Source: Caldilinea sp. CFX5
GTDB taxonomy: Bacteria > Chloroflexota > Anaerolineae > Caldilineales > Caldilineaceae
Assembly (NCBI GenBank): GCA_021405325.1
Contig: QWII01000199.1
Coordinates: 1-5,395 of the forward strand
DNA: 5,395 nucleotides
Direction: 5' to 3'
Shown: piece after piece, positions 1-5,395 of the stretch
How the letters are laid out: every line of letters begins with the position of its first letter
Position numbering within the stretch: position 1 is the stretch's first letter
The notes under the pieces: generated by a model
The model's input: the letters and a program-made list of their open reading frames with translations, nothing else
Database searches by the model: none
Told to the model about the DNA's origin: nothing
Position numbers and translations under genes: made by a program

Positions 1-138
1 AGCCACATCGGCATTGGTTTCGTATAAGGCGTGCGCCTGGGCGCTGCGTTGTCCGGGCAGCGCCTGAGCGCCGAAACCTGCTAACCACAGGAGGGCGCAG
101 CAGAGCAAAGCCGACAACATGATTATCTGAGAACGCAT
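1..138 (-). CDS. N-terminus of an exported protein of unknown function (runs off the left edge)
   Basis: Only the first 46 codons are visible and the reading frame is still open at the window edge. The product starts MRSQIIMLSALLCCALLWLA and continues through GFGAQALPGQ, which is a typical Sec signal peptide: one Arg near the start, a long Leu/Ala/Cys/Ile hydrophobic core, and an A-Q-A signal peptidase I site at residues 24-26. The two Cys in the core are not followed by a lipobox arrangement, so a lipoprotein is unlikely. The ATG at 138 is preferred because a strong purine-rich Shine-Dalgarno (GGAGGAAGGA, 153-144) sits 5 nt upstream; a second in-frame ATG at residue 7 lacks such a site. The mature part (LPGQRSAQAHALYETNADVA) is too short to assign to a family. 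It is codirectional with the two modular surface proteins upstream, separated by 347 bp. Export is well supported; function is unknown. Confidence 0.75.
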   Translation of the reverse strand, partial: MRSQIIMLSALLCCALLWLAGFGAQALPGQRSAQAHALYETNADVA

Positions 139-376: not shown

Positions 377-407
377 AGAAGGAGGAGGCAAATTGTCTCC
401 TCCTTCT
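377..407 (-). terminator. Stem-loop, candidate terminator of the 848-residue protein gene
   Basis: An 11-bp perfect stem (377-387 with 397-407) encloses a 9-nt loop, 78 nt beyond the stop codon at 486. One arm is purely purine (AGAAGGAGGAG on the plus strand). No U-tract follows on either strand, so it is not a textbook intrinsic terminator; it could act as a U-less terminator or an mRNA 3'-end stabiliser. Two more small dyads adjoin it, TTGTCAGTGACAA (365-377) and TTATGC...GCATAA (342-363). Confidence 0.5.
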
Positions 408-485: not shown

Positions 486-3032
486 CTAGCGTTGGATGTA
501 CGGCAAGAGTTGCTTGTAGATCTTGCTCGCCGCTTCGCCGATTTGCACGGAACCATCGGTGACGGCGACCGGCACATCAACACCCTCAGCGCTGCCCAGC
601 GAAGATTCGACCAAGGTGACAGATGCTTGATCGGCATCCGCATCCTGGCGCACCGTTAGGGCAACCGAGGCGAGTTCACCATCACTGACAACATCCGTCG
701 CAAGGGCAAACTCAAGGCGGCTCTCCGCCGCATTGTAGACCACGGAAGCGAAGGCGCTCGCCGCCACATTCAGGCGCACAGCATCGGGAATGCCATCACC
801 GTTGGCGTCGCTGGCGTCGAAGCTCAGTTGGTCGCCATCGAAGTCAAGGGCAAAGGCGGCCGCGCTCACGGCATGACCGTTCGCCTTCAGGGTCACAGGG
901 ACATTCACCACGTTGCCACGGGCAGCCTTCACCCCGCCGGCAACGGCCAGTTGGGCGGCGTCACTGCTACCGGCTGCCATAACCGCGGTGCAGGTCGCAG
1001 CCGGGTTGAACATCTTGACCGCCGTGCAGGATAGATCCGATGCATTGACAAACATATCTGCATTGGAGTTACAGCCATAAGGGCTGTAAGCGTAGGTGCC
1101 CAGGTCGGTGTCATACCAGTTGCTGCCGGCCGGCAGATCGAAGAGTTCCAACGCCGTCGCCGTCAGGTCGGCGCCACCGAGGCGACCATCCTTGTTGCAG
1201 TCACCCAGGGCGACCGGGCTGCCATTGGATGCCAGATCACGGCCCAGCACCAAAGTGACCACGGCTTTGTCTGTTAACGCCCCGGCCGGGTCATTATCGG
1301 TCAGGGTATAGGTGAAGACATCGGTCGTGGCCTTGGGGTTGGTCGGCACATAGAGGACGCTCAAGCCCTGGTTGGTCGTTGTGCCGGAGATGCCATTGGT
1401 CACCGACTGGATACTGCAATTGGCGCAGAGGGCCGCGCCATCCGGATCACTGTCATTGGTGAGCAATGTTGTGATCACTTTGCGCCCACGGATAACGATG
1501 GCGGGAGCATCATCATTGGCGATCGGCGCCACGTTCACTTTGGTGATCTGGATCGGGAAGGTCTTGGTGAAGATGCCGCCATAGGTGTCCGTGGTTTGGA
1601 TAACCAGGTTGTAGGTGCCGGGGGCCAGGCCAGCATTCAGAAGTTGCAATTCATTGCCGAAAGCAATGGTAAAGTTAGCCGTGATCGGCACAGTAGCATA
1701 GGTGTGCGTATCGCCTGCATCCGGATCCGTGGTCGACAGCGTGCCAATGAATTTGGGTGTTGTCGGGCCTTGCGGTACGCTGCTGTTGGAGAGCGCAATG
1801 TTGGTCGGTTTCTGGTTTGCGCCACCAACCGAAGTGGTCTTATCTTGCGCGGCCGCGCCCGGAATTGGCGCACCGGTTGGACCACCAAAGAAATCATTCT
1901 TCAAATCAAAGGTCTGATTGGCAGCGCCGCAGGTCGTGCTGGCTTTGAACTGGATCGTCGCAATGACACGGGTCGGTGTGCCAGAGCCGGCTAAAATGCC
2001 GCCGGTGACTGAGGCAAGCGAGAAGCGCAATTCTTCGGGGCCAAGACCGGCGCCGGTATCCAGATCGGCCTTCAGGAAGTAGAAGTTGGGCAGACCGAAG
2101 TTGCTCGTTGCATCATCTTCCAACGCATCCACGGCGCGACGGGCATTGGTCGGGTTATCCGGATCGAGCAGACAAGCCGGATAAGCCAGGTCGAAATCAA
2201 CCGCAGCAACGTTTACATCCGGGCTGTTCAGGATCACATCGATTTTGAAGGTGTGATTGCTGAAGGCATAGGGTTCGCTCAAGCTCAGGAAAGGATTGCC
2301 CGGACAGCGCACCGTCACGCTGACCGTACCGGCGGCTTGCAGGCCACTGCCATCCTGCACCAGATAGGTGAAGGTGACAGGCGTCGCACTACAGAAATTG
2401 GCAACCGGCGTGTACCGGATTTGGCTGCCTTCGATCACGGCGGCGCCGCTTGGATTGGGCGTCGAAACGCTGCCGGCGACCAACGACCGCGAATCACCAG
2501 GTTCATTGGGGCCGCCATTATCGTTCGCCAACACGTCGATCAGGACGGACTGATTCTGGTTGGTTGTGGCGCTATCCGCACCGGCAACCGGACCATCATT
2601 GACCGCCGTAATGCTGACCGATACAGTGGCTTTGGCGCCGCAGACCACCGGTGTCGCAATGGTACAGAGCTGATACTCAAAGATCACTGCATCAGTGCGG
2701 TTTGCACCAGGAGTGTATTGAATCTTGTAGCTTCCCGTGCCGGCAGCATCGCGCGGTAGCAACTCAACAGCCGTACCATGAGCAGGGCCAGGGACAACAA
2801 TTGCCACCAAATAGCGATTGCCAGCATCAACCACGATACCTGTATCAATGGTAGTAGCCGTATCTTCCGGCGTCGTTTGGGTTTTGGCGACGGCGGCCGG
2901 CGGCGTTTGCGCGAAGACTGTACCGGCGCTCAGGATCATAAGCAGGAGGGTAGTTGCACAGATGACTGCCGCTACCACTGCTGTCGGATACTTGCTGCGG
3001 TCACGCAAGGTAGAAATTGCGTGTAAACTCAT
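486..3032 (-). CDS. Secreted multidomain cohesin/dockerin and cadherin-like surface protein (848 aa)
   Basis: A complete extracellular scaffold-type protein with no recognisable catalytic domain. Residues 1-41 are a Sec signal peptide (Arg/Lys-containing start, hydrophobic core about 18-38, cleavage after VFA). Then come Ig/cadherin-like (Big_9-type) domains at about 54-143 and 144-242, with the typical yTP...vtFtY...tvsvtv strands; cohesin-like A at 246-403; a cadherin-like repeat at 405-500 (DPDAGDTHTY core); a third Ig/cadherin-like domain at 501-597 (LTNDSDPDG); a dockerin-like module at 609-677; cohesin-like B at 690-832; and a tail ending IYKQLLPYIQR. The start ATG has a perfect GGAGGG Shine-Dalgarno 6 nt upstream. 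Cysteines occur as likely pairs (123/131, 214/243, 287/368), as expected for an exported protein. It lies 523 bp downstream of another cohesin-bearing gene on the same strand. Domain names are assigned from sequence pattern, not from a profile search. Likely role: cell-surface adhesion or scaffold assembly. Confidence 0.9.
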   Translation of the reverse strand: MSLHAISTLRDRSKYPTAVVAAVICATTLLLMILSAGTVFAQTPPAAVAKTQTTPEDTATTIDTGIVVDAGNRYLVAIVVPGPAHGTAVELLPRDAAGTGSYKIQYTPGANRTDAVIFEYQLCTIATPVVCGAKATVSVSITAVNDGPVAGADSATTNQNQSVLIDVLANDNGGPNEPGDSRSLVAGSVSTPNPSGAAVIEGSQIRYTPVANFCSATPVTFTYLVQDGSGLQAAGTVSVTVRCPGNPFLSLSEPYAFSNHTFKIDVILNSPDVNVAAVDFDLAYPACLLDPDNPTNARRAVDALEDDATSNFGLPNFYFLKADLDTGAGLGPEELRFSLASVTGGILAGSGTPTRVIATIQFKASTTCGAANQTFDLKNDFFGGPTGAPIPGAAAQDKTTSVGGANQKPTNIALSNSSVPQGPTTPKFIGTLSTTDPDAGDTHTYATVPITANFTIAFGNELQLLNAGLAPGTYNLVIQTTDTYGGIFTKTFPIQITKVNVAPIANDDAPAIVIRGRKVITTLLTNDSDPDGAALCANCSIQSVTNGISGTTTNQGLSVLYVPTNPKATTDVFTYTLTDNDPAGALTDKAVVTLVLGRDLASNGSPVALGDCNKDGRLGGADLTATALELFDLPAGSNWYDTDLGTYAYSPYGCNSNADMFVNASDLSCTAVKMFNPAATCTAVMAAGSSDAAQLAVAGGVKAARGNVVNVPVTLKANGHAVSAAAFALDFDGDQLSFDASDANGDGIPDAVRLNVAASAFASVVYNAAESRLEFALATDVVSDGELASVALTVRQDADADQASVTLVESSLGSAEGVDVPVAVTDGSVQIGEAASKIYKQLLPYIQR
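537..965 (-). other. Cohesin-like domain B (residues 690-832)
   Basis: It opens with LAVAGGVKAARGNVVNVPVTL, then AVSAAAFALDFDGDQLSF, a loop SDANGDGIPD, then SRLEFALAT, GELASVALTV and a closing DGSVQIG strand. The loop and preceding strand match the cohesin-like domain of the upstream protein at 12 of 19 positions (777-833 against 4906-4962), so the two are paralogous. Unlike domain A it has no cysteine. Confidence 0.7.
1002..1208 (-). other. Dockerin-like pair of calcium-binding loops (residues 609-677)
   Basis: The first loop is D611-x-N613-x-D615-G-x-x-G619-x-x-D622 (DCNKDGRLGGAD), followed by a helix-like LTATALELF. The second is N655-x-N657-x-D659-x-x-x-N663-x-x-D666 (NSNADMFVNASD), followed by LSCTAVKMF. 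This 12-residue loop plus F-helix, present twice, is the type I dockerin signature. The linker between the repeats is longer than usual (about 22 residues, aromatic-rich). Cys612, 654, 669 and 681 are in or next to the module and may pair. Dockerins bind cohesins, and cohesin-like modules flank this one. Confidence 0.75.
1824..2297 (-). other. Cohesin-like domain A (residues 246-403)
   Basis: It shows the cohesin plan: an opening strand (FLSLSEPYAFSNHTFKIDVIL), then VAAVDFDLAYPACLLD matching the family's 'v.g.dfdl.YDp..L' strand, a variable loop, LRFSLAS, then TRVIATIQFKASTTC. Cys287 and Cys368 sit where a disulfide could staple two strands, and the full cohesin-like domain of the upstream protein has Cys at both matching positions. 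A carbohydrate-binding-module fold is an alternative, as the two folds look alike at this level. Confidence 0.65.
2910..3032 (-). other. Signal peptide of the 848-residue protein
   Basis: Residues 1-41. R10, R12 and K14 form a positively charged n-region, 18-38 is an uninterrupted hydrophobic/small stretch, and V39-F40-A41 followed by QTPP fits a signal peptidase I site. The mature N-terminus is Gln/Pro/Thr-rich. Confidence 0.85.
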
Positions 3033-3038
3033 GAGTTT

Positions 3039-3044
3039 CCCTCC
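3039..3044 (-). promoter_or_regulatory. Shine-Dalgarno of the 848-residue protein gene
   Basis: GGAGGG on the minus strand, 6 nt before the ATG at 3032. It is near-ideal and settles the start codon. Confidence 0.8.
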
Positions 3045-3266
3045 AAAAGGTTAAAAAGATGGATGACAGGTTTCCCGTTGCCCAAAGGGCTATTGAGAAA
3101 CAAAACAACGAACAAACAACAGATGGGTATTACAGTGCTTGCCTTGATTGCGGGCTGTTCGGTCCACTGGGCTGACAGGATGGAGTGCAGCTATTTCAAT
3201 CTTTCTACCCTGGTTCAAATTGGGCCGAGAACAGCAATTGTGTCACCTCCCTATCGTACATTGTTG

Positions 3267-3323
3267 GGGCGTTCGCTTTAGGTGATTACGCGAGCCGTGC
3301 TTCGAGTGAACGCCTGGTTTTTT
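3267..3323 (+). terminator. Intrinsic-terminator-like hairpin reading on the plus strand
   Basis: Twelve contiguous pairs join 3267-3278 to 3304-3315 (three G-U, rest Watson-Crick; core GGCGTTC/GAACGCC). Two nucleotides later comes TTTTTT (3318-3323), continuing as ATTTATTTA. The loop is long, about 25 nt. This is the only hairpin in the window with a proper U-tract, and it faces the opposite way to all three genes. Confidence 0.5.
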
Positions 3324-3478
3324 ATTTATTTAGCCACTCTAGAAAAGGATTGGTGCATCTACGTGACTTTTCTAGCATTTATGATGAACGGAAGCACAGA
3401 CAATCATGCAGGAGAGCCATGAAGATCGTGTTGCTGCGTTTGTCGGCCCCGGTACATCCAACAAAAGGTGTTGCGAGC

Positions 3479-3534
3479 GGTAGGCAGAAGGCCCGGTGCT
3501 TGCCGTCAGCTACTGGTGTGGCCTTCTGCCTACC
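3479..3534 (-). terminator. Long perfect hairpin after the truncated cohesin protein gene
   Basis: A 15-bp perfect stem (3479-3493 with 3520-3534, arm GGTAGGCAGAAGGCC) has a 26-nt loop, starting 21 nt beyond the TAA at 3556-3558. There is no U-tract on the minus strand. The position suggests a transcript end, and it resembles the hairpin at 377-407 in having a purine-rich arm and no U-run. A dispersed REP-like repeat is an alternative. Confidence 0.5.
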
Positions 3535-3555
3535 CGTCCGTCGTCGCTAGTGCGC

Positions 3556-5395
3556 TTACTGCTTGGTCACGACGGGCAAGAACATCCGCTGACGTAATGT
3601 CTCATCGCGATCCAGGTCAGCATCGGTCAACTCAGCGTCGGCCACGCTGCTGGGGTTCGCCGCGCCAACCGCAAACTGTTCACCCGCAGCTTCGTCCGCC
3701 GTCGCGGCGACGATGCTGGTGAAGGGCAGCAGTTGATTGGCGGCAACCAACGCGGTATCATCAATGTCGTAATTGAAGCCCTTGCTGGCGCCCACAAAGA
3801 AGGCGGCAAAGCGGCAGTCGGTTGCGGCGCCGATGGCCAGGAGCTGGCAAGTGAAAATATCGCTCTCCTTCCCACTCAGCGCATTGGCCTTGCCGACAGC
3901 CGTAAAGCTGCCCTTGGTGCTGAGGTAGAGATTGCCATTCGCCTTGTCCAGCCAGGCGGCATCAATATCTTCGCTACTGCTGGTCAGCGCCACCCGTGAG
4001 CCGTCGAAGTAAAGTGCCCAACTGCCGGCCGTATTGGCGCCCAGGCTGGTTGCGGTAAAGGCAAACAGGTCTTCATCGGCGCCGCTGACGCCGCCGGCGG
4101 AGAAGGAACCCTCGGTGCTGATGAGCAGGCGACCGTTGGCGTCCAAGGCAATTGCGTCCAAGTGTTCACTGTCGCCGCTCAAGCCGACATCGGAGCCGTC
4201 GAAGTACCATTGCAACGTACCGGCGGTCGTTGAACCCAGGCTCGTTGGAATGAAACGTAAGATGTCAGAAGGCGTCACTTCACCCAACCCCGCAATGGTG
4301 ATTTTCTTGCTGGGGGTTAGCAGGAAGCTGCCATCGGGCAACAGATCGAAGGCTTCCAGATCGACATTGCCAATGCCAATATCCGAACCATCAACGACCA
4401 GCGCCCAGCCGCCCGTGGTTGCGTTGTACGCCAGAATATCCTCGTCCTTAAAGGATACGCCATTGACACTGCCACTGGAATCGCTGACACTGACCAAGAG
4501 AAGGTTGCTGCTTGCCGGAACCGTGGTCGGCGTCGACGTGGCGGTTGGCAGGCTGGTTGCCGTGCTGGTCGGTGTGGCCGTATGGGTTGGCGTGCTGGTT
4601 GCGGTCGCCGTTGGTAAGGCCGGGCCACTGATCGTCACCGCACCGTTGACGGCATGACCAGCCGCCGAGGCGCCGCCCGGCGTGCCGAAGCTAACCGGCG
4701 TGTTCGTGCCAAAGTTCACCGGCGCTACTTGCGATCCGCCGGCGGCCGGCTGACAGGTAGCGGTGAAGCGAATGGTCAGCAACGGGTTAATCGAGGGTAA
4801 AGTCGCAGCCGGTTGCGTTGCGGCGCTAATGATGAAATTCAGCTCGCCATCCGCATGCCCAGCCACGATCGCACCTGCAGTAAAGCCGGCGGGGACAAAG
4901 AACGTAATCGCGTCGGGGATGCCATTGCCGTTCGCATCGGCGCTATTAAAGGAAAGACAGGTTTGATCATAATCGACCGTGAACGCCATAGTAGAGATGT
5001 TAGTGCTGGTCGCCTGATAAGCAATGGGTACGTCTACTGAACCACCCGTAGTGGTCGACGCATTGCCGATGATCAACGCCGGGCCGGTAAAGACGGGAAT
5101 CGGTGTGTTAGTTGGCGTGTTGGTCGGCGTGTTGGTCGGCGTGTTGGTCGGTAGTGGGGTCGCCGTGTGCGTTGGCGTATTGGTCGGTGTGTTGGTGGCC
5201 CCGGTTGTCGCGGTTGCCGTTGGGGTGTTGGTGGCGACCGCCGCCACGCCTGTAATCGTGACCACGCCGGAGCCGTTGGTATAAGAGAGTTCGCTTCCAT
5301 TCTCCGCCGTCACATTGATGAACTGGCTAAAGGAGACGGTGCGCTGGATCGAACTGCCGGCGCCCGGATCACAGGCGGCCTTGGCCGTAAAGGTC
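3556..5395 (-). CDS. Surface protein with cohesin-like domains, Thr/Pro linkers and a four-unit repeat domain (5'-truncated at the right edge)
   Basis: The frame is open from the window edge (first full codon 5394-5392) to TAA at 3556-3558, giving 612 visible residues; the true start lies outside. A GTG at 5313 is not the start: it falls inside a domain, lacks a Shine-Dalgarno, and the residues before it are clearly coding. Domains by visible residue: 1-49, end of a cohesin-like domain (Cys8, closing VVTITG strand); 55-99, NTPT linker; 105-257, complete cohesin-like domain with loop DANGNGIPD and Cys146/Cys214; 258-294, second Thr/Pro linker; about 297-557, four internal repeats with conserved DGSDxG and EdiDA motifs, family not recognised; 558-612, acidic tail ending RQRMFLPVVTKQ. 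No catalytic residues are apparent. It is probably exported and surface-attached, but its signal peptide is not visible. The cohesin-like domain is paralogous to domain B of the downstream 848-residue protein. Confidence 0.88.
   Translation of the reverse strand, partial: TFTAKAACDPGAGSSIQRTVSFSQFINVTAENGSELSYTNGSGVVTITGVAAVATNTPTATATTGATNTPTNTPTHTATPLPTNTPTNTPTNTPTNTPIPVFTGPALIIGNASTTTGGSVDVPIAYQATSTNISTMAFTVDYDQTCLSFNSADANGNGIPDAITFFVPAGFTAGAIVAGHADGELNFIISAATQPAATLPSINPLLTIRFTATCQPAAGGSQVAPVNFGTNTPVSFGTPGGASAAGHAVNGAVTISGPALPTATATSTPTHTATPTSTATSLPTATSTPTTVPASSNLLLVSVSDSSGSVNGVSFKDEDILAYNATTGGWALVVDGSDIGIGNVDLEAFDLLPDGSFLLTPSKKITIAGLGEVTPSDILRFIPTSLGSTTAGTLQWYFDGSDVGLSGDSEHLDAIALDANGRLLISTEGSFSAGGVSGADEDLFAFTATSLGANTAGSWALYFDGSRVALTSSSEDIDAAWLDKANGNLYLSTKGSFTAVGKANALSGKESDIFTCQLLAIGAATDCRFAAFFVGASKGFNYDIDDTALVAANQLLPFTSIVAATADEAAGEQFAVGAANPSSVADAELTDADLDRDETLRQRMFLPVVTKQ
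3736..4440 (-). repeat. Four-unit internal protein repeat, possible beta-propeller (family not recognised)
   Basis: Units begin at D-[IL]-[LF] at about 4440, 4266, 4071 and 3861 (spacing 58, 65 and 70 residues). The consensus is D(I/L)(L/F)xF, TSLGxxTAG, a W/Y-containing strand, (F/V)DGSxVxL, E-x-(I/L)-DA, nG-x-L-x-(I/L)ST-x-GSF. Units 2 and 3 are the most alike; unit 1 has a shortened front half, and unit 4 is degenerate with two cysteines and GASKGF in place of DGSDVG. The alternation of strands and turns fits blades of a propeller, but four units is few for a closed one. It is not a dockerin or cohesin. Confidence 0.65.
4513..4623 (-). repeat. Second Thr/Pro/Ser-rich linker
   Basis: Visible residues 258-294 are built from TATSTPT-like units and join the complete cohesin-like domain to the repeat domain. 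Unlike the first linker, the DNA repeat is degenerate and Asn is absent, so the two linkers are not recent copies of each other. Confidence 0.75.
4624..5082 (-). other. Complete cohesin-like domain of the truncated protein (visible residues 105-257)
   Basis: PALIIGNASTTTGGSVDVPI opens the domain, followed by ISTMAFTVDYDQTCLSF (the cohesin 'Y-D' strand), loop SADANGNGIPD, ELNFIISA, PLLTIRFTATC and a closing NGAVTISG strand. Cys146 and Cys214 could form a disulfide between the middle strands. The partly visible domain at the right edge ends in the same way (TFTAKAACDP ... GVVTITG), so at least two such modules were present in tandem. Confidence 0.7.
5098..5232 (-). repeat. Asn-Thr-Pro-Thr linker with a 12-bp DNA tandem repeat
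   Basis: About 45 residues of NTPT/TATP units join two cohesin-like domains. At DNA level GTGTTGGTCGGC (plus strand) repeats at 5117-5128, 5129-5140 and 5141-5152 (last copy imperfect), preceded by a diverged copy at 5105-5116 with two mismatches. The period of exactly four codons keeps the frame whatever the copy number. Such linkers are flexible, extended and often O-glycosylated; none of that can be shown here. Confidence 0.85.

What the first reader, a model, noticed from the sequence alone, without database searches (positions are those of the whole stretch)
486..5395. Non-enzymatic cohesin-dockerin scaffold on neighbouring genes
The 848-residue protein has a dockerin-like module between two cohesin-like domains, and the neighbour carries at least two more cohesin-like domains on Thr/Pro linkers. 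Cohesin-dockerin pairs are best known from cellulosomes, where enzymes carry dockerins. Here no glycoside hydrolase or other enzyme is visible and one chain carries both partners, so it could in principle polymerise or bridge to the neighbour. That would be a surface polymer or adhesion matrix rather than a cellulosome. Binding is inferred from domain type only.
Basis: partly seen in the sequence, partly recalled or inferred. Interest (0 to 1): 0.75.

Follow-up and report, generated by a model that had tools for sequence, protein, structure and literature searches.

The report
Non-cellulosomal cohesin–dockerin adaptor gene pair
Two neighbouring secreted-protein genes, probably from a Caldilineales-like bacterium, carry cohesin modules, and one also carries a cysteine-rich dockerin variant held next to a cohesin in the same chain; the same arrangement recurs in relatives and looks like a connector kit for protein assemblies outside the cell rather than a cellulose-degrading machine.

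Summary
Protein A (486-3032, -, 848 aa) reads Ig, cohesin 1, cadherin, Ig, dockerin variant, cohesin 2, LP tail. Cohesin 2 passes Pfam's cut-off; cohesin 1 is divergent (profile comparison 97.5%). The dockerin has two calcium-type loops and four cysteines, but Pfam does not call it. Neighbour B (3556-5394, -, cut by the window end) has one whole cohesin, perhaps the end of another, and a beta-propeller. Neither shows an enzyme.

Elsewhere this cysteine-type dockerin is nearly always in cis with cohesins: 14 of 14 places in 46 genomes of one order, and 47 of 52 database proteins (45 Coh-Doc-Coh). In those genomes it co-occurs with one cohesin subfamily (9 of 9 against 1 of 37), and at 8 of 14 loci the next gene downstream is a cohesin gene; in the window that order is reversed. 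Peptidases carry the cassette too, so the family is not strictly non-enzymatic.

Best reading: adaptor of a non-cellulosomal cohesin-dockerin network acting between chains. Binding is untested. New variant of a known kind.

The parts
486..3032 (-). Gene A, 848 aa modular protein (486-488 is the stop codon)
   Evidence: complete ORF; 29 relatives in alignment A1 at 39-92% identity, query coverage 77-100%
2907..3032 (-). A residues 1-42, signal-peptide-like N-terminus
   Evidence: read from the sequence; A41 and Q42 at least 90% conserved in A1; no signal-peptide predictor was run
2313..2600 (-). A residues 145-240, Big_9 Ig-like module
   Evidence: Pfam PF17963, whole-protein E 3.6e-24, best stretch
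1821..2309 (-). A residues 242-404, divergent cohesin 1
   Evidence: no Pfam hit; hhalign with the cohesin 2 family 97.5%, E 7.2e-12; weak PDB scaffoldin hit 5n5p, E 0.0096, 40 positions
1533..1811 (-). A residues about 408-500, cadherin-like module
   Evidence: A1 profile matches cadherin chains in the PDB; PF00028 at E<=1 in 19 of 30 A1 members; boundaries read by eye
1242..1532 (-). A residues about 501-597, further Big_9/cadherin-like Ig module
   Evidence: three Big_9 stretches in the protein; boundaries read by eye
987..1208 (-). A residues 609-682, cysteine-type dockerin variant
   Evidence: loops, and cysteines 612, 654, 669, 681 in 30 of 30; Dockerin_1 below cut-off in relatives; AF2 model poor, pLDDT 56, with one helix after each loop
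1167..1202 (-). dockerin loop 1, residues 611-622 (DCNKDGRLGGAD)
   Evidence: positions 613 and 622 in 30 of 30
1035..1070 (-). dockerin loop 2, residues 655-666 (NSNADMFVNASD)
   Evidence: positions 655 and 666 in 30 of 30, 657 N in 29, 659 D in 26 of 30
534..968 (-). A residues 689-833, cohesin 2
   Evidence: Pfam PF00963 37.1 bits, E 4.3e-9; family profile hits the solved cohesin 5nrk, E 1.8e-11
489..509 (-). A C-terminal tail LLPYIQR
   Evidence: tail motif in 30 of 30 A1 members
3556..5394 (-). Gene B, at least 612 aa, N-terminus beyond the window
   Evidence: open frame to the window end; relative P0121 (785 aa, 75% identity over 84%) shows two cohesins, linkers and the propeller
5248..5394 (-). 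B residues 1-49, possible C-terminal end of a first cohesin
   Evidence: weak: family HMM positions 117-148, E 0.17; 41% identity over 49 residues to the end of the P0130 cohesin, E 0.37
4630..5085 (-). B residues 104-255, cohesin
   Evidence: family HMM E 9e-27; Pfam 22.7 bits, just below cut-off 24.1
5101..5235 (-). B Thr/Pro linker 1
   Evidence: read from the sequence
4513..4614 (-). B Thr/Pro linker 2
   Evidence: read from the sequence
3721..4503 (-). B residues about 298-558, four-repeat hemopexin-like beta-propeller
3559..3585 (-). B C-terminal tail MFLPVVTKQ
   Evidence: read from the sequence
377..407 (.). hairpin after gene A (15-nt arms, 93% complementary, 1 nt between)
3479..3534 (.). 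hairpin between B and A (15-nt perfect arms, 26 nt between)

Best explanation
Gene A encodes a secreted, surface-displayed adaptor of a non-cellulosomal cohesin-dockerin network. Ig and cadherin-like modules form a stalk; the cysteine-type dockerin next to cohesin 2, with cohesin 1 further up, is the connector. The dockerin of one chain binds a cohesin of another chain: the cohesin(s) of neighbour B, which sit on Thr/Pro linkers beside a propeller, or a cohesin of another A molecule. A joins chains; B displays cohesins. Shown here: the module identities (cohesin 2 firm, B cohesin near-threshold in Pfam but clear by family HMM, cohesin 1 and dockerin by divergent similarity), the cis arrangement, its recurrence, the co-occurrence with one cohesin subfamily, and the gene pairing in relatives. 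Inferred: secretion, calcium binding, binding in trans, which cohesin is the partner, and any adhesive role.
For: Architecture kept in A relatives, with loops and all four cysteines. The dockerin variant occurs at 14 places in 9 of 46 genomes of one order; all 14 share a frame with a cohesin. Re-read with family HMMs: cohesin downstream in 13 of 14 (weakest E 3e-3), upstream in 12, both in 11. In a database search with the dockerin region of P0099, 45 of 52 are Coh-Doc-Coh and 2 more Doc-Coh; P0099 itself came from the A search and has rows in both HMMs, so this is a second look, not fully independent. All 9 genomes with the dockerin have the A7 cohesin subfamily against 1 of 37 without (Fisher p 9e-9, not corrected for kinship). 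34 of 42 A7-cohesin places lie in the dockerin frame (26) or in another frame of the same contig (8); those 8 are each the next gene downstream, same strand, first ATG 19-193 nt away. Five of 52 carry the dockerin at the extreme C-terminus without a cohesin, the usual layout of a module that binds a cohesin elsewhere.
Against: No binding was tested. Window A's dockerin is not recognised by Pfam and its AF2 model is poor (pLDDT 56; Foldseek best E 1.8). In the window the order is reversed (B upstream of A, 523 nt apart, hairpins after each), unlike the 8 relatives. 4 of 14 loci have no neighbouring cohesin gene in the stretch held and 2 end too soon to tell. The fixed step between upstream cohesin and dockerin in 41 of 45 proteins could also mean a rigid cis unit.
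Confidence: 0.5

Rival explanations
1. Enzyme scaffold: A and B are scaffoldins of a cellulosome-like but proteolytic or hydrolytic system, and their cohesins recruit secreted enzymes whose dockerins are encoded elsewhere in the genome.
For: The dockerin variant is on enzymes: M36 fungalysin peptidases (L119, L121) and a PGAP1-like alpha/beta hydrolase (L128), a C11 clostripain (P0280), and, as a C-terminal dockerin alone, on an S8 subtilase (P0288), a PGAP1-like protein (P0290) and a CAP protein (P0276).
Against: Only 5 of 52 have the free C-terminal dockerin; most dockerins are tied to cohesins in cis. No enzyme in the window, and the window's own genome could not be searched. No glycoside hydrolase catalytic domain appeared among the 7 and 10 proteins scanned; L128 has only a sub-threshold hit to a GH2 C-terminal Ig-type domain.
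Confidence: 0.25
2. Cis unit: the dockerin is packed against its own cohesin(s) and the Coh-Doc-Coh cassette is one rigid structural element, not an intermolecular connector.
For: The step from dockerin to the next cohesin is short (8-42 positions in 47 of 52 proteins), and the step from the upstream cohesin to the dockerin is exactly 6 positions in 41 of 45; conserved cysteines may lock the dockerin.
Against: In the window family and in L122 and L126 the upstream cohesin is separated from the dockerin by about 200-360 residues, so contact with it is not fixed. Free C-terminal dockerins exist. Adjacent cohesin-only genes need another explanation.
Confidence: 0.15
3. The 'dockerin' is only a calcium-binding, disulfide-stabilised EF-like spacer that does not bind cohesins.
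For: Pfam does not call it in the window protein and scores it below cut-off in relatives where bits were shown; four cysteines; 44 residues between loop starts against 34 in 2ccl; loop-1 position 5 is Ser in 16 of 30 A1 members and 5 of 30 have a 5-residue insertion in loop 1.
Against: Dockerin_1 aligns over nearly its whole length in relatives (P0276 22.2 bits against 22.9, profile 2-50 of 57); loop-1 position 5 is Asp in 47 of 52 wider relatives; co-occurrence with one cohesin subfamily.
Confidence: 0.1

Closest known systems
Non-cellulosomal cohesin/dockerin proteins of bacteria and archaea (Peer et al. 2009, recalled, seen only as reference 166 of PMC9012536; ANME scaffoldin-like proteins, PMC9012536 section 32, read)
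   Same: Cohesin and dockerin on proteins of organisms not known for cellulose breakdown; a dockerin with several cohesins on one chain is reported in ANME archaea.
   Different: Here a cysteine-type dockerin is held at a near-fixed distance from flanking cohesins, co-occurs with one cohesin subfamily, and often has a cohesin gene next door; section 32 as read mentions no such fixed cassette.
Cellulosomal scaffoldins with cohesins and a dockerin on one chain (Acetivibrio cellulolyticus, PMC3413522, passages read)
   Same: Both partner modules on one polypeptide; works like an adaptor scaffoldin.
   Different: No CBM, SLH module or glycoside hydrolase called in the window proteins; Ig, cadherin and propeller modules instead.
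Dockerin type I, PF00404
   Same: Two loop-helix type segments with D-x-N-x-D...D spacing; near full-length alignment in relatives.
   Different: Three to four conserved cysteines, longer inter-loop segment, below Pfam's cut-off.
Hemopexin-like four-bladed propeller
   Different: 10% identity; no Pfam family matched; membership not shown.

Membership tests
Cohesin (PF00963), A cohesin 2 | score above Pfam cut-off over most of the domain | tested here: met
   37.1 bits against 24.1, profile 5-139 of 139
Cohesin (PF00963), A cohesin 1 | score above Pfam cut-off | tested here: not met
   one PF00963 stretch only, at 698-831; related to cohesin 2 by hhalign 97.5%, E 7e-12, so called divergent and cohesin-like only
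Cohesin (PF00963), B | score above Pfam cut-off | tested here: not met
   22.7 bits against 24.1; family HMM, which holds a row from the B relative P0121, gives E 9e-27 over positions 5-149
Dockerin type I (PF00404) | score above Pfam cut-off | tested here: not met
   no hit in the window protein at E<=1; 4 of 30 A1 members at E<=1, best 0.0035; none of the 14 places is among the 32 PF00404 places; best wider relative P0276, 22.2 against 22.9
Dockerin type I (PF00404) | two calcium loops with D/N at positions 1, 3, 5, 12 | tested here: met
   both loops in window A; in relatives positions 1, 3 and 12 are kept, position 5 of loop 1 varies
Dockerin type I (PF00404) | loop-helix fold | tested here: inconclusive
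   one helix after each loop but mean pLDDT 56; no significant fold match
Dockerin type I (PF00404) | calcium-dependent binding to a cohesin | not testable with these tools
   needs a binding assay or a complex prediction
Cellulosome | dockerin-bearing glycoside hydrolases and a CBM-bearing scaffoldin | tested here: not met
   no enzyme or CBM called in the window proteins; peptidases and other hydrolases but no glycoside hydrolase catalytic domain in the relatives scanned; the window's genome could not be searched
Non-cellulosomal cohesin-dockerin system | cohesin and dockerin modules together outside a cellulosome | tested here: met
   with the dockerin reservation above
Hemopexin-like propeller (B C-terminal domain) | four-bladed propeller fold | tested here: inconclusive

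The most novel reading that the evidence does not exclude
The Coh-(Cys)Doc-Coh cassette is a dedicated self-assembling unit: the dockerin of each chain binds a cohesin of the next, giving head-to-tail or branched extracellular fibres, with the adjacent cohesin-only protein as a cap or anchor. It would be a cohesin-dockerin polymer system, kept as a fixed module and plugged onto stalk proteins and secreted peptidases in Caldilineales, Anaerolineales and unnamed bacteria.
Probability: 0.25. Interest if true: 0.8.

Novelty: new variant of a known kind. Interest (0 to 1): 0.5.

Why it matters
Cohesin-dockerin biology is centred on cellulosomes. A cysteine-containing dockerin subfamily that is nearly always beside a cohesin, co-occurs with one cohesin subfamily and often has a cohesin gene next door gives a concrete, testable non-cellulosomal system. 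If binding is in trans it offers a natural protein-polymer or matrix mechanism in Chloroflexota, and a new pair of affinity modules.

Tried and rejected
Cellulosome reading: dropped, as no glycoside hydrolase, CBM or SLH was called in the window proteins. PDB search with single sequences: no hit for A, six weak hits (E 0.15 and above) for B, among them three cohesin-type chains. Scan of GTDB r220 contigs with the A alignment: 44 pattern matches, none confirmed, so close A relatives were available only as database proteins; the second scan used B's propeller (260 confirmed, the best 80 kept). AF2 of the dockerin alone was too poor to use; the 50 rows shown of its 69 Foldseek matches are not evidence either way, and no dockerin among them is not held against it. 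Phylum sample: dockerin variant in 3 of 400 genomes, one of them G001 itself, with at most 14 candidates scored per genome, so it is rare outside the order in that sample. Ordinary PF00404 dockerins in the same 46 genomes: 32 places, 17 without a cohesin in frame, 8 upstream only, 7 both, so the cis rule is strong for the cysteine type, not for dockerins at large; the cysteine type was scored with extra cohesin evidence from the A1 hits, which favours it somewhat. Promoter and terminator scan: counts no higher than in shuffles. Papers: the listings (for, 20 of 47 papers) showed nothing describing a Coh-Doc-Coh cassette in Chloroflexota or a cysteine-type dockerin; I judged from titles and abstract starts, except passages of PMC9012536 (and its section 32), PMC4877987, PMC5590126 and PMC3413522. 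PMC4877987 reports no cohesin or dockerin in five Anaerolineae genomes and UNI-1. Peer et al. 2009 was not held and may already describe related layouts.

Full report
What is in the window. Two frames on the minus strand: B (3556-5394, cut at its N-terminus by the window end) and, downstream of it, A (486-3032, 848 aa). Pfam and NCBIfam call Ig and cadherin-like modules and a cohesin in A, a sub-threshold cohesin in B, and no enzyme in either. A reads: signal-like N-terminus, Ig module(s), cohesin 1, cadherin-like, Big_9, dockerin variant, cohesin 2, LP tail. B reads: possible end of a cohesin, Thr/Pro linker, cohesin, Thr/Pro linker, propeller, LP tail. No whole genome is held for the window. 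A Caldilineales-like Chloroflexota origin is inferred from the best whole-genome matches, which lie in the order of a MAG titled Caldilineaceae (L032 = G001), and from labelled relatives of B such as P0133, Caldilineaceae.

How sure each module is. Cohesin 2: Pfam 37.1 bits; family profile to the solved cohesin 5nrk at E 1.8e-11. Cohesin 1: no Pfam hit; hhalign with the cohesin-2 family 97.5%, E 7e-12; its own profile finds one PDB chain at E<=10, a scaffoldin, E 0.0096. B cohesin: 22.7 bits in Pfam, under the cut-off; E 9e-27 with the family HMM, which includes a row from the B relative P0121. Dockerin: two loops with canonical spacing; C612, C654, C669, C681 in 30 of 30. In 52 wider proteins the cysteines at model positions 3, 45 and 60 are 52 of 52 and the fourth 35 of 52; at the 14 places in the order they are 12, 12, 13 and 10 of 14. 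Pfam Dockerin_1 misses the window protein and is below its cut-off wherever bits were shown for relatives, the best being P0276 at 22.2 against 22.9. I therefore call it a dockerin variant, not a member of PF00404. Its AF2 model is too poor to decide the fold.

The arrangement recurs. In 46 genomes of the order of G001 the dockerin-variant profile matches 14 places in 9 genomes. All 14 share a frame with a cohesin. Re-read with the family HMMs, 13 of 14 have a cohesin downstream (the fourteenth frame, L132, is cut by a contig end; the weakest of the 13 is L125, E 3e-3), 12 of 14 one upstream, 11 of 14 both. These 14 partly reflect how the profile was built, from A relatives plus P0099. As a second look I searched the protein database with the dockerin region of P0099 alone: 52 proteins of 272 candidates, of which 45 are Coh-Doc-Coh, 2 Doc-Coh and 5 dockerin alone at the very C-terminus. 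The coordinate step from the end of the upstream cohesin to the start of the dockerin is exactly 6 in 41 of 45; the downstream step ranges from 8 to 42 in 47. P0099 was found through the A search and is a row of both HMMs, and the 52 are related to each other, so these are not independent events. Window A differs in that cadherin and Ig modules separate cohesin 1 from the dockerin, as in L122 and L126.

The partner signal. The cohesin-2 subfamily profile (A7) matches 42 places in 10 of the 46 genomes: all 9 dockerin-variant genomes and one other, G047 (Fisher p 9e-9, not corrected for kinship). 26 of 42 lie in the dockerin frame, 8 in another frame of the same contig, and 8 elsewhere (5 in G047, 2 on G027:C363, 1 at G003:C33). 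The 8 same-contig frames (in L120, L122, L123, L124, L125, L126, L128, L131) are each the next gene downstream on the same strand, with the first ATG 19-193 nt away. Of the other six loci, four (L121, L127, L129, L130) show no neighbouring cohesin gene in the stretch held and two (L119, L132) end too soon. In the window the cohesin gene B lies upstream of A, 523 nt away, with a hairpin between them and one after A; so the window pair is not in the common order. For one A relative and one B relative (P0008, P0131) the longest contig has the same length, 23,280 nt, which fits neighbourhood but was not checked.

Enzymes. The window shows none, but the cassette or the dockerin sits on M36 peptidases (L119, L121), a PGAP1-like hydrolase (L128), a C11 peptidase (P0280), an S8 subtilase (P0288), a second PGAP1-like protein (P0290) and a CAP protein (P0276). 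Other carriers scanned are Ig/cadherin stalk, propeller-repeat, beta-helix or LRR proteins.

Mechanism. I favour binding in trans: the dockerin of A engages a cohesin of B or of another A. The co-occurrence, the gene pairing in relatives and the free C-terminal dockerins favour this; the fixed short joins leave room for a cis unit; enzyme-borne dockerins leave room for an enzyme scaffold. None of these was tested by binding or by complex prediction.

Against the known. A dockerin and cohesins on one chain is known in cellulosomal scaffoldins (PMC3413522, passages) and in ANME archaea (PMC9012536, section 32), and non-cellulosomal forms have been reviewed (Peer et al. 2009, recalled; not held). 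In the search listings made I saw no description of a cysteine-type dockerin fixed between cohesins with a cohesin gene next door. Hence: new variant of a known kind, interest 0.5.

Noticed in passing
window 489-509 and 3559-3585 (-); L119-L138: A short C-terminal tail (aliphatic/aromatic, L/M/I/V/F, P, two mostly aliphatic residues, then 1-5 residues) ends 30 of 30 A1 members and 27 of 217 frames of 200 aa or more in L119-L138, against 0 of 217 for the same motif 30 residues upstream. The motif was drawn up after seeing these tails and many of the 217 frames are not genes. It could be a sorting or anchoring signal; one paper search listed nothing on it.
   Followed up: partly
window 3721-4503 (-): Four-repeat hemopexin-like propeller without a Pfam call, found at or near the C-end of many proteins in Anaerolineae, and in loci titled cyanobacteria, Nitrosomonas, Methylobacter, Rhodopirellula and Phycisphaerae.
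   Followed up: partly
window 1-138 (-): Start of another secreted-looking protein downstream of A, cut by the window end; it could be the downstream neighbour seen in relatives, but too little is present to tell.
   Followed up: no
G045:C133, G038:C334, G044:C44, G003:C33, G003:C85, G044:C14, G001:C47: Ordinary Pfam dockerins also lie between two cohesins in one frame at 7 of 32 places, so Coh-Doc-Coh is not limited to the cysteine type.
   Followed up: partly
P0276, P0279, P0282, P0288, P0290: Five proteins with the cysteine-type dockerin at the very C-terminus and no cohesin: a CAP protein, an LRR protein, one without a family above cut-off, an S8 subtilase and a PGAP1-like protein; candidate clients of the cohesins.
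   Followed up: partly
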